Shown piece after piece: positions 35,728 to 47,896 of a DNA stretch of 47,995 bases (position 1 is its first letter; every line of letters starts with the position of its first letter). The translations under genes and the position numbers were made by a program. This DNA comes from Gammaproteobacteria bacterium. GTDB taxonomy: Bacteria; Pseudomonadota; Gammaproteobacteria; Steroidobacterales; Steroidobacteraceae. The stretch covers positions 1-47,995 of the forward strand of contig JAJPKM010000043.1 in the NCBI GenBank assembly GCA_021323735.1. Direction: 5' to 3'. The notes under the pieces are model-generated. The model worked only from the letters and a program-made list of their open reading frames with translations. It did not search any database and was not told where the DNA came from.

Positions 35728-36156
35728 CTAAACGCGGCGCTTCTTGGGCGGACGGCAGCCGTTATGCGGAATCGGCGTCACATCCTCGATGTTGGTGATC
35801 TTCAGACCGCAGCCGTTCAAGGCACGCACCGCCGACTCGCGTCCCGGGCCCGGGCCCATCACGCGCACTTCGACATTCTTCACGCCATGTTCCTGCGCCG
35901 CGGTGCCGGCGCGTTCCGCGGCAACCTGCGCTGCGAACGGCGTCGATTTGCGCGAGCCGCGATAACCGCAACCGCCCGATGTCGCCCAGGACAGCGTGTT
36001 GCCCTGCCGATCGGTGATGGTAATGATGGTGTTGTTGAAGGAGGCATGCACGTGCGCGATCGCATCCAGCACGTTCTTGCGCACTTTCTTGCGCGCAGGT
36101 TTGGCGCCTTGCGTGGCGGCCGCGGCCTGCTGCGTATTCTGTTTCGGATCAGCCAT
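35728..36156 (-). CDS. rpsK: 30S ribosomal protein S11
   Basis: Platform protein of the small subunit that contacts the mRNA exit region. It is 142 residues against 129 in E. coli; the extra residues are an Ala/Gln-rich N-terminus ([19 protein letters not shown]). The conserved core includes [38 protein letters not shown] and the C-terminal [12 protein letters not shown]. Its start codon is preceded by the repeated double-hairpin element also seen before rpsJ, within a 76-base gap after rpsM. Confidence 0.98.
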
Positions 36157-36168
36157 TTATACTTCCCG

Positions 36169-36217
36169 TGCGCTTCGCGCAACTGTTGACGGGGTCGCGG
36201 CGACCCCGACCGAAAAA
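36169..36217 (-). repeat. Double-hairpin leader element, rpsK copy
   Basis: Read on the minus strand: a T-run with CGG, a large stem (36190-36197 with 36201-36208; CGGGGTCG pairing CGACCCCG), the spacer GTCAACAGT, then a small hairpin TGCGC-GAA-GCGCA (36169-36181) ending 12 bases before the rpsK ATG. A near-identical element is found at 47781-47830 before rpsJ. The T-run precedes the stem in the direction of transcription, so it is not a standard terminator for this operon. Confidence 0.8.
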
Positions 36218-36232
36218 ACCTTACCCAAGCCT

Positions 36233-36613
36233 TTAGACCTTGCCCGGCGGCGCGTTCATCTTCACCGCCTGCTTGCGCGGACCTTTGCGCGTGCGGGCAT
36301 TGGTGCGCGTGCGTTGGCCGCGCATCGGCAGGCCCTTGCGATGCCGGATGCCACGGTAGCAACCCAAATCCATGAGGCGCTTGATGTTCATGGACACTTC
36401 GCGGCGCAGATCGCCTTCCACGGCGAATTTCGCGACCTGAGATCGCAATGAAGCCACTTCGGCGTCGGTCAAGTCCTTCACCTTGACGTGATGCTTCACG
36501 CCGGCGGCATCACAGATGCGTGCGGCACGGCTGTTGCCGATGCCGAAAATATGGGTCAGGCCGATGACGACATGCTTGTTCATAGGAATGTTGATGCCGG
36601 CGATACGCGCCAT
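36233..36613 (-). CDS. rpsM: 30S ribosomal protein S13
   Basis: Head protein of the 30S subunit that contacts the 50S (bridges B1a/B1b) and P-site tRNA. Its 126 residues begin [20 protein letters not shown] after Met and end in a basic tail ([17 protein letters not shown]). The H2TH region [16 protein letters not shown] is typical. It is the first gene of the alpha operon and lies just downstream of a good sigma70 promoter. Confidence 0.98.
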
Positions 36614-36650: not shown

Positions 36651-36679
36651 AGTATATTAGAAAATCCTCTGAAAATCAA
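36651..36679 (-). promoter_or_regulatory. Sigma70 promoter of the alpha operon (rpsM-rplQ)
   Basis: On the minus strand, TTGATT (36674-36679) and TATACT (36651-36656) are separated by 17 bases, close to consensus. It sits between rpmJ and rpsM; transcription would start around 36644. The leader contains CCGCGC and GCGCGG around a T-rich loop, which could form a hairpin near the rpsM start, where S4 binds in E. coli. Confidence 0.8.
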
Positions 36680-41905: not shown

Positions 41906-41917
41906 AAATTTTCCACG

Positions 41918-41991
41918 GGCTACGCCCGAACATTTCCGCGGGTTTGCACAAAGCCGCAAACCCGCTCCGATAGGCCGGCGCTGCGCGCCGG
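41918..41991 (-). other. Three hairpins in the rplN-rplX gap
   Basis: In transcription order: CCGGCGC/GCGCCGG with loop GCA (41975-41991), a perfect 10-bp stem GCGGGTTTGC/GCAAACCCGC with an 8-base loop (41938-41965), and CGGGC-GTA-GCCCG (41916-41928) just before the rplX ATG. No T-run follows any of them. The arrangement of a long stem and then a short hairpin before a start codon resembles the rpsK and rpsJ leaders but the sequences differ. Confidence 0.7.
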
Positions 41992-42005
41992 ATTCAAGAG
42001 TCGTT

Positions 42006-47222: not shown

Positions 47223-47228
47223 TGTCAA

Positions 47229-47355
47229 TCCTCATACAGCGAGGGCTTCAATGAGCCTCGCATCGTTGCGAAAGATCAGCGGTTTGGACACACGGACCCC
47301 AAATCCCCGTAAGAATTTGGCGTCGGCACCCACGCGCTCCGACCTCTAAAATGGA
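47229..47355 (-). promoter_or_regulatory. Long leader of the rplC transcript
   Basis: About 130 untranslated bases between the predicted start point near 47355 and rplC. On the minus strand it can form CCAAAT/ATTTGG with a 10-base loop and, nearer the gene, GCGAGG/CCTCGC with an 11-base loop. Its position makes it a candidate for L4-type feedback, but I cannot match it to the E. coli S10 leader. Confidence 0.45.
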
Positions 47356-47361
47356 CGCGGG

Positions 47362-47389
47362 AGTATACCCGAAATCACCCTAAGTTCAA
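47362..47389 (-). promoter_or_regulatory. Sigma70 promoter upstream of rplC
   Basis: On the minus strand, TTGAAC (47384-47389) and TATACT (47362-47367) with a 16-base spacer, between the rpsJ stop and rplC. The -10 box is identical to that of the alpha-operon promoter at 36651. It would make rplC-to-rpsQ and beyond independent of rpsJ-tuf transcription. Confidence 0.8.
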
Positions 47390-47424
47390 GCTTTCGGCAG
47401 CGCCTGGCCAGGCGCGCGTCAGCA

Positions 47425-47736
47425 CTAATTCAATTTGATTTGGACGTCGACGCCGGCCGGCAATTCCAGCTTCATCAGCGCATCCACGGTCTTGTCCGTT
47501 GGGTTCAAAATGTCCATTAGCCGCTTGTGCGTGCGGATTTCGAACTGATCGCGGGCATCCTTATCGCCGTGCGGGGCCGTAAGGACCGTGAATCGCTCCA
47601 TTTTGATGGGCAGCGGTACGGGACCCTTGACGGTGGCGCCCGTGCGCTTCGCGGTGTCCACGATCTCGCGAGCCGACTTGTCGATCAAGCGATGATCGAA
47701 AGCCTTCAGGCGGATGCGTATGTTCTGATTTGCCAT
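47425..47736 (-). CDS. rpsJ: 30S ribosomal protein S10 (NusE)
   Basis: Small-subunit head protein that also acts as NusE in antitermination and couples RNA polymerase to the ribosome through NusG. The 103 residues equal E. coli S10: [60 protein letters not shown]. It is separated from tuf by 176 bases with four hairpins, and from rplC by a promoter and a leader, so it may be transcribed with tuf. Confidence 0.98.
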
Positions 47737-47755
47737 GTTTATTTAACTCTTCCCA

Positions 47756-47770
47756 GGGCCGAAACGGCCC
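47756..47770 (-). repeat. Short hairpin before rpsJ
   Basis: A 6-bp stem GGGCCG/CGGCCC with an AAA loop on the plus strand (TTT on the transcript side), 20 bases before the rpsJ ATG. It resembles the core of the neighbouring double-hairpin elements but lacks their flanking T-run. Confidence 0.6.
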
Positions 47771-47780
47771 CGAATTACCA

Positions 47781-47830
47781 TGCGCTTCGCGCAACTATTC
47801 ACGGGGCCGAAACCGGCCCCGCCCGAAAAA
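47781..47830 (-). repeat. Double-hairpin leader element, rpsJ copy
   Basis: Same layout as at 36169-36217: T-run, large stem (47802-47809 with 47814-47821; CGGGGCCG pairing CGGCCCCG), spacer, then TGCGC-GAA-GCGCA (47781-47793). Against the rpsK copy, the fifth position inside the stem changes from a T-A pair to a C-G pair on both arms, so pairing is kept. Confidence 0.8.
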
Positions 47831-47877
47831 GGTGGTGGATCTTACGCTATTCCAGACGCTTGCGCGCCAGAATTTCC

Positions 47878-47896
47878 CGGGGCCGATGCGGCCCCG
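47878..47896 (-). repeat. Third copy of the large stem, after tuf
   Basis: CGGGGCCG/CGGCCCCG with a 3-base loop, the same 8-bp stem as the rpsJ copy, again with CCCC and a run of five A on its plus-strand right side. It lies 17 bases after the tuf stop and lacks the small TGCGC hairpin. It may act on tuf 3'-end formation or read-through to rpsJ. Confidence 0.7.

What the first reader, a model, noticed from the sequence alone, without database searches (positions are those of the whole stretch)
36169..36217. A repeated, covarying double-hairpin element in front of rpsK and rpsJ
Two roughly 50-base segments, 11.6 kb apart in the same gene cluster, share nearly the same sequence: a TGCGC/GCGCA mini-hairpin, a conserved AACT-TT-ACGGGG spacer/stem and a CCGAAAAA flank (plus-strand reading). 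In the large stem, one copy has a T-A pair where the other has C-G, changed on both arms, and the loops differ (CGG versus AAAC). Compensatory change points to selection for folding rather than a recent exact duplication. Both lie directly before a ribosomal protein start codon (12 and 44 bases away). This could be a family of small palindromic elements living in ribosomal leaders, or a shared RNA regulatory site.
Basis: seen in the sequence. Interest (0 to 1): 0.72.

Follow-up and report, generated by a model that had tools for sequence, protein, structure and literature searches.

The report
Sense-strand double hairpins between core genes
A short pair of RNA hairpins recurs, mostly on the transcribed strand, in the gaps between housekeeping genes of one bacterial lineage, where it comes and goes between species and may let neighbouring genes of one transcript be expressed at different levels.

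Summary
In detail: two ~50-base double hairpins precede rpsK and rpsJ, with a compensatory C-G/T-A pair. On the coding (minus) strand each is an A hairpin (CGGGG-YCG...CGR-CCCCG), an eight-base linker and a B mini-hairpin (TGCGC-GAA-GCGCA).

They belong to a dispersed family: 15 copies at 12 loci in this genome (E<=1e-4), e.g. before fusA, gapA, atpD and rpoB; up to tens in some congeners; a few in other genera of the family. In 369 sampled genomes of the class only the own genome passed E<=1e-5.

It is not an ordinary REP (few copies, no GT(A/G)G head, no Y1/RAYT transposase in 23 genomes) and not a conserved S11 leader: 17 of 18 relatives have a bare 3-25-base gap before rpsK, the sister species included.

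Between co-directional genes 68 copies run with transcription and 8 against. Small hairpins carry GNA/GNRA loops on the sense strand 61 times, the reverse type 10 times. Stems covary.

Best reading: a lineage-amplified intercistronic RNA element acting as a message boundary (3'-protecting A, open linker, 5'-capping B). Family, polarity and recent gain are shown; the mechanism is inferred, and a mobile-DNA-only reading remains open.

The parts
36209..36216 (-). 5' box of copy 1 (TTTTCGGT, variant of CTATCGGA)
36190..36208 (-). A hairpin of copy 1, before rpsK (8 pairs, loop CCG)
36182..36189 (-). linker of copy 1 (TCAACAGT)
36169..36181 (-). B mini-hairpin of copy 1 (TGCGC-GAA-GCGCA), 12 bases before the rpsK start
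47822..47829 (-). 5' box of copy 2 (TTTTCGGG)
47802..47821 (-). A hairpin of copy 2, in the tuf-rpsJ gap (8 pairs, loop GTTT)
47794..47801 (-). linker of copy 2 (TGAATAGT)
47781..47793 (-). B mini-hairpin of copy 2, identical to copy 1
47853..47896 (-). third, diverged A-linker-B copy in the tuf-rpsJ gap
   Evidence: R2 E=3.7e-6; fold
47754..47772 (-). lone A-type hairpin before rpsJ
   Evidence: only E=0.09 as part of an R1 match
41975..41991 (-). lone C-type hairpin (CCGGCGC-GCA-GCGCCGG) followed by CCTATCGGA, in the rplN-rplX gap
35728..36156 (-). rpsK (S11), downstream gene of copy 1
36233..36613 (-). rpsM (S13), upstream gene of copy 1
47425..47736 (-). rpsJ (S10), downstream gene of copy 2

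Best explanation
It is one member of a lineage-specific family of small intercistronic RNA elements: [C hairpin] - CTATCGGA - A hairpin - GTTGAAAGTT - B hairpin with a GNA or GNRA loop - A/G-rich stretch, often close to the next start codon. Copies are gained at individual gaps, mainly of core operons, and are found mostly on the transcribed strand. In the polycistronic message the element most likely acts as a segment boundary: the strong A hairpin protects the 3' end of the upstream message, the open linker is where processing would occur, and the B hairpin caps the 5' end of the downstream message beside its ribosome-binding site, so that neighbours can be expressed at different levels. Shown here: family, structure, covariation, polarity, gain and loss, core-operon placement. 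Inferred: cleavage, stabilisation, uncoupling.
For: 15 copies at 12 loci, by my reading 9 of the 12 at translation, transcription, ATP-synthase, glycolysis or nucleotide genes; flanking families confirmed by Pfam where scanned. Polarity: 68 sense against 8 antisense among copies between co-directional genes, of 110 copies in all; by locus cluster 30 sense-only, 5 antisense-only, 3 both, 17 other of 55. Loop polarity in co-directional gaps 61 GNA/GNRA against 10 reverse type of 228 hairpins, against 38 and 50 in coding DNA of the 400-kb sample. Covariation. Box and linker conserved. Same kinds of gap occupied in several species and other genera: rpsG-fusA, rplL-rpoB, rpsB-tsf, sucC-sucD, atpH-atpA. 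At rpsG-fusA some relatives without it carry other hairpins, three or four with a T run. Intercistronic stem-loops set transcript ratios in C. cellulolyticum (PMC4423207, passages).
Against: No transcript data for this lineage. 20 of 110 copies lie between convergent or divergent genes and 8 run against co-directional genes. The fold of some copies with their flanks is not better than shuffled or not two separate hairpins. Relatives do well with no element at the same gaps. In the ribosomal-protein loci not chosen by the model the loop polarity is only 5 against 2. The loops and polarity could also come from replication-linked insertion.
Confidence: 0.45

Rival explanations
1. A selfish REP- or MITE-like palindrome spread by an unknown enzyme in trans, surviving in gaps because insertions elsewhere are harmful; the hairpins serve mobility, not the host.
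For: Gain at rpsM-rpsK in G000 alone, absent from its sister G020; near-identical B in several loci; patchy numbers between congeners, 0 to 37; both orientations at the same gap in different species (infB-rbfA, erpA-ndk).
Against: No Y1/RAYT transposase in 23 genomes (other families not searched); strong sense bias; sense-strand GNA/GNRA loops; few copies; concentration at core operons.
Confidence: 0.27
2. A dispersed RNA regulon: a trans-acting protein or small RNA binds the box and linker and controls translation, transcription and energy genes together.
For: Conserved single-stranded CTATCGGA and GTTGAAAGTT; copies concentrated at core genes.
Against: The linker drifts outside the genus (GTTGAA in 5 of 20 copies from L242-L261); near relatives without copies; copies after genes, between convergent genes (12 of 110). 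No binding partner was sought.
Confidence: 0.14
3. A partial terminator or attenuator between cistrons.
For: Strong G+C-rich stem A; some relatives have a hairpin with a T run in the same rpsG-fusA gap.
Against: A is followed by GTTGAAAG, not a T run; the terminator scan flagged none of the three copies in the window.
Confidence: 0.08
4. A single-stranded DNA hairpin made or inserted on the lagging-strand template; the apparent sense bias only reflects core genes running with the fork.
For: GNA-loop hairpins are very stable in DNA (recalled); core genes usually run with the fork (recalled).
Against: Not tested: no replication map of these contigs. GNRA tetraloops (17 of the 61) are a classical RNA motif.
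Confidence: 0.04
5. An autogenous leader bound by S11 or S10.
For: Position before rpsK and rpsJ.
Against: Absent before rpsK in 17 of 18 relatives; the same element stands before gapA, atpD, fusA and others; no Rfam match at gathering scores and four chance-level ones around copy 1.
Confidence: 0.02

Closest known systems
REP/BIME elements with RAYT transposases (PMC2817692; abstract and passages)
   Same: Small dispersed intergenic palindromes with compensatory changes in the stems
   Different: No GT(A/G)G head, no Y1 transposase gene, 15 copies instead of usually over 100, two unlike hairpins with a conserved linker, strong sense bias
Selective RNA processing and stabilisation stem-loops (PMC4423207, C. 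cellulolyticum; passages)
   Same: Hairpins in operon gaps, orthologous sets changing between species; proposed function the same
   Different: There individual stem-loops tied to mapped processing sites; here one repeated double-hairpin family, no transcript data
Repetitive hairpin-forming / double-hairpin elements of mitochondrial genomes (PMC2800124, passages; listing)
   Same: One or two hairpins inserted in intergenic regions, scattered between related taxa, sequence divergent
   Different: Mitochondrial; no strand bias or core-operon concentration known to me
TAACTGA repeats of Beggiatoaceae (PMC4679880; abstract and passages)
   Same: Mostly forward-oriented intergenic repeats just before start codons, some in ribosomal-protein operons and at fusA; post-transcriptional role proposed
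   Different: Heptamer direct repeats without hairpin structure; 169 sets in one genome

Membership tests
REP/BIME | Cognate RAYT (Y1_Tnp) transposase in the lineage | tested here: not met
   PF01797: 0 of 23 genus genomes; control rings in 5 of 14 named genomes including E. coli. Several genomes are incomplete.
REP/BIME | GT(A/G)G head at the foot of the palindrome | tested here: not met
   Majority flank is CTATCGGA in 81 copies
REP/BIME | High copy number, usually over 100 | tested here: not met
   15 copies at E<=1e-4, 26 matches at E<=0.05; up to 37 in a congener with R1. The paper's table also lists REPs with about 20-50 copies, so this alone does not exclude.
REP/BIME | Alternating inverted orientation within composites | tested here: inconclusive
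   68 sense, 8 antisense between co-directional genes; some gaps (tuf-rpsJ of G010, G018, G021) hold copies in both orientations
Mobile element in general | Target-site duplication or a mobilising enzyme | tested here: inconclusive
   None seen by eye at rpsM-rpsK against the G020 gap, but the flanks are too diverged; only the Y1 family was searched
Autogenous ribosomal-protein leader | Conserved at the same gene in relatives | tested here: not met
   rpsM-rpsK: own genome only of 19 gaps read
Intrinsic terminator | Stem followed by a T run | tested here: not met
Known Rfam family | Match at gathering score | tested here: not met
   Window: 0 matches
Selective RNA processing and stabilisation stem-loop | Lies in gaps between co-transcribed genes | tested here: met
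   68+8 of 110 copies between co-directional genes; co-transcription itself not tested
Selective RNA processing and stabilisation stem-loop | Mapped processing site and different transcript levels of the flanking genes | not testable with these tools
   needs RNA sequencing
Mitochondrial double-hairpin element | Two hairpins joined by a short linker, lineage-specific in gaps | tested here: met
   (a resemblance of form; descent from mitochondrial elements is not claimed)

The most novel reading that the evidence does not exclude
A bacterial RNA 'plug-in': a copy-and-paste double hairpin, selected at the RNA level, by which a lineage adds expression boundaries or a common regulatory site to essential translation, transcription and ATP-synthase operons, read by a trans-acting factor through the conserved CTATCGGA box and GTTGAAAG linker, and spread without a known transposase.
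Probability: 0.2. Interest if true: 0.82.

Novelty: new variant of a known kind. Interest (0 to 1): 0.6.

Why it matters
Ribosomal-protein operons are usually treated as static. Here gaps inside them gain structured elements between sister species, mostly in one polarity, often between genes whose products are needed in different amounts. That gives natural with/without species pairs for testing how intercistronic hairpins set protein ratios, and a case of repeats that look recruited at the RNA level and spread without a RAYT.

Tried and rejected
Rejected: autogenous S11/S10 leader; RAYT-driven REP; intrinsic terminator; known Rfam family. Hundreds of hidden copies: a 400-kb sample of G000, G010 and G018 gave two marginal R2 matches (E 0.0015 and 0.0026) and one GNA/GNRA hairpin in 82 co-directional gaps. 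For full copies that sample is underpowered: about 0.7 would be expected in its 200 kb of G000 if 15 copies were evenly spread.

R1 matches in genomes outside the genus were mostly weak; of those printed I took L177 and L182 as possible relatives and did not use the others.

Limits of the counts: searched 62, 59 and 82 chosen sources, not all loci held. The 115 matches became 110 after overlapping ones were dropped; one search profiled 81 of the best 82. Rows were fetched in part (60 stretches, best scores first). The gene caller is my own codon score and sometimes starts a gene too early: 17 of 83 distances to a downstream sense start are negative, 32 are 2-17 bases, 34 longer. One search missed the fusA start in 12 of 19 loci; one search read 18 (a second G004 match, L315, was dropped). 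The rpsJ start of G007 was not found. The clusters join loci that share one homologous flank. The tree is a quick one with SH-aLRT only. Searches used stricter filters that lose weak matches.

Paper searches: listings only, except passages of four papers. None of the listed items looked like a description of this element; that is no proof of absence.

Full report
OBSERVATION. The genes are on the minus strand, so the element is best read there: a strong A hairpin, an eight-base linker, a B mini-hairpin TGCGC-GAA-GCGCA, then the start of rpsK or rpsJ (coordinates; S13, S11, S10 by Pfam). The T-A/C-G exchange in the A stem is real. The tuf-rpsJ gap also holds a third, diverged copy and a lone A hairpin, and the rplN-rplX gap a lone C-type hairpin followed by CCTATCGGA.

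FAMILY IN THE OWN GENOME. The 16-mer around B has 4 exact matches, and 23 with up to 2 mismatches against 8 for the reversed control; several of the inexact ones lie in coding sequence without an A hairpin. A model of four copies (R1) found the rpsJ copy, not in its training set, at E=3.1e-14. A model from 70 aligned copies (R2) gives 15 matches at E<=1e-4 and 26 at E<=0.05. The 15 lie at 12 loci: tkt-gapA, proC-yggT, rpsM-rpsK, after infA, tuf-rpsJ (2), a PEP-synthase-like gene/orn, infB-rbfA, rpsG-fusA (2), rplL-rpoB, erpA-ndk, a gap near a gyrB/parE-type gene (2), atpG-atpD. S7, S11, S13, S10, EF-G, GAPDH, P5CR, YggT, IF-2, RpoB, AtpD, AtpG, the orn-type exonuclease, the PEP-utilising enzyme and the gyrase-B-type gene were confirmed by Pfam; tuf, tkt, rbfA, infA, rplL, erpA and ndk were recognised by eye. 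Three of the 13 best copies lie in this 48-kb window (Poisson p=0.0005 for even spread).

RANGE. With R1, 29 of 60 relatives have a match at E<=0.01; the large sets are in the same genus (37, 25, 23, 21, 13, 13, with 18 in the own genome), while some congeners have none. With R2, 18 of 120 genomes of the family, in 9 of 25 genera, have a match at E<=1e-4. Among 369 genomes of the class only the own genome passes E<=1e-5. In other genera stem sequences differ but the A-linker-B layout recurs, at rpsG-fusA, rplL-rpoB, rpsB-tsf, sucC-sucD and atpH-atpA among others (names by eye). The linker drifts: GTTGAA is in 5 of the 20 copies from L242-L261, one of them without an A hairpin.

STRUCTURE. On the 70-copy alignment 98.5% of cells pair (shuffled mean 91.5), 8 of 13 pairs change on both sides (shuffled 2.5), 60 cells change on both sides (shuffled 18.3), 0 of 500 shuffles as high, and slid versions fall far below. 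That alignment was fitted to the model and leans towards it. Single-sequence folding is mixed: z=-0.48 for the rpsK gap, -4.12 for the rpsJ gap (A pairing with the lone A hairpin), -0.95 for the third copy, -1.91 for gapA, -3.40 and 0.10 for the two fusA pieces. In 81 copies CTATCGGA is the majority sequence before A; an upstream hairpin of any kind is found in 40, 30 of them ending 8-10 bases before A; B loops are mostly GAA, GTA, GCA or GNRA-type tetraloops.

POLARITY. Of 110 non-overlapping copies 68 run with both flanking genes, 8 against both, 12 lie between convergent and 8 between divergent genes, 14 at contig ends. By locus cluster: 30 sense-only, 5 antisense-only, 3 both, 17 other, of 55. 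In 231 co-directional gaps, many of them chosen because they hold a copy, 61 of 228 small G+C-rich hairpins have GNA/GNRA loops on the sense strand and 10 the reverse type. In coding DNA of the 400-kb sample the numbers are 38 and 50. In the ribosomal-protein loci alone, not chosen by the model, it is only 5 against 2. The polarity is what an RNA-level role predicts; a replication-linked cause is not excluded.

GAIN AND LOSS. rpsK was found in 19 of 23 genomes of the genus, the own included. The rpsM-rpsK gap has the element only in the own genome; 17 others have 3-25 bases and G004 has an 80-base gap with a double hairpin of other sequence. G020, the sister of G000 (SH-aLRT 100 on 16 proteins, 18 genomes), has 14 bases. 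So this copy is a recent gain, and a similar structure was gained separately in G004. At tuf-rpsJ, of 14 gaps 4 have full copies, 1 the A hairpin only, 8 none (5 of these with an unrelated hairpin by eye) and 1 was not read. At rpsG-fusA 7 of 18 have it; of the 11 without, three have a hairpin with a T run and one a G+C-rich stretch with a T run, two other hairpins, five gaps of 5-12 bases. The element-bearing species mostly start fusA with ATG (6 of 7), the others with GTG (11 of 11). In G021 the infB-rbfA and erpA-ndk gaps hold inverted copies, so the same gaps seem to be hit more than once.

WHAT IT IS NOT. Not a REP/BIME by the tested features (head, RAYT, usual copy number; features from PMC2817692). 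Not a known Rfam RNA. Not an intrinsic terminator. Not an S11 leader (above).

MECHANISM. The most economical reading is an intercistronic message boundary: A protects the 3' end of the upstream message, the open linker is the processing site, and B, 2-17 bases before the next sense start in 32 of 83 cases with 17 more unreadable through early start calls, caps the downstream message. Several recurrent gaps separate proteins needed in different amounts (L7/L12 and RNA polymerase, S7 and EF-G, EF-Tu and S10, AtpG and AtpD; general knowledge). Work on C. cellulolyticum reports that intercistronic stem-loops set such ratios (PMC4423207, passages). No step of the mechanism has been shown for this element. 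A bound factor and plain mobile DNA remain open.

NOVELTY. Hairpins between cistrons and hairpin repeats are known. A structurally conserved, sense-biased double hairpin that is gained at gaps of core operons, without RAYT, is to my knowledge a new variant. Six paper searches listed nothing that describes it; most subscription papers are not in that library.

Noticed in passing
window 47223-47424 (rpsJ-rplC gap, minus strand): A 168-247-base leader before rplC in 9 of 9 genomes read, with a promoter-like TATACT in most and a conserved GGTCGGAGCGCGTGGGTGCCGACGCC hairpin whose G-T-C-G-G/C-C-G-A-C stem becomes GCCGG/CCGGC in G006, G015 and G019; no Rfam match. Looks like an undescribed ribosomal-protein leader.
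   Followed up: partly
window 41906-42005 (rplN-rplX gap): The own genome has a gap of 82 bases or more with a lone C hairpin and CCTATCGGA; nine relatives have 0-17 bases, G018 has 126 bases of other sequence, two were not read.
   Followed up: partly
L295-L312, fusA start codons: fusA starts with ATG in 6 of 7 species with the element and GTG in 11 of 11 without (Fisher p=0.0004, not corrected for kinship).
   Followed up: partly
L268, rpsM-rpsK gap of G004: An 80-base gap with a double hairpin of unrelated sequence (GGCGCC-type stem, then GGCGC-GTA-type hairpin) at the same place as copy 1.
   Followed up: no
L230 and L231 (G021): Inverted copies at infB-rbfA and erpA-ndk, gaps that hold sense copies in other species.
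   Followed up: no
L247, L244, L249 (genus g2): The B hairpin ends directly in the ATG of the next gene (rplF, a carB-like gene and rplO by eye), so the hairpin abuts the start codon.
   Followed up: no
L303, L308, L309, L310 (rpsG-fusA gap of G004, G022, G006, G015): Terminator-like hairpin or G+C-rich stretch with a T run just upstream of fusA in species that lack the element.
   Followed up: no
window 36651-36679 (secY-rpsM gap): Promoter-like TTGATT-17-TATACT upstream of rpsM; the TATACT-like part recurs in most of the 17 genomes read.
   Followed up: no
G018:C28, G010:C147, G013:C460: These contigs have the same lengths as PLUE01000039.1 (bog_1223), PLAH01000027.1 (bog_1204) and JANYIY010000256.1 (GL140_3), recorded as Gammaproteobacteria MAGs, which suggests the lineage.
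   Followed up: partly
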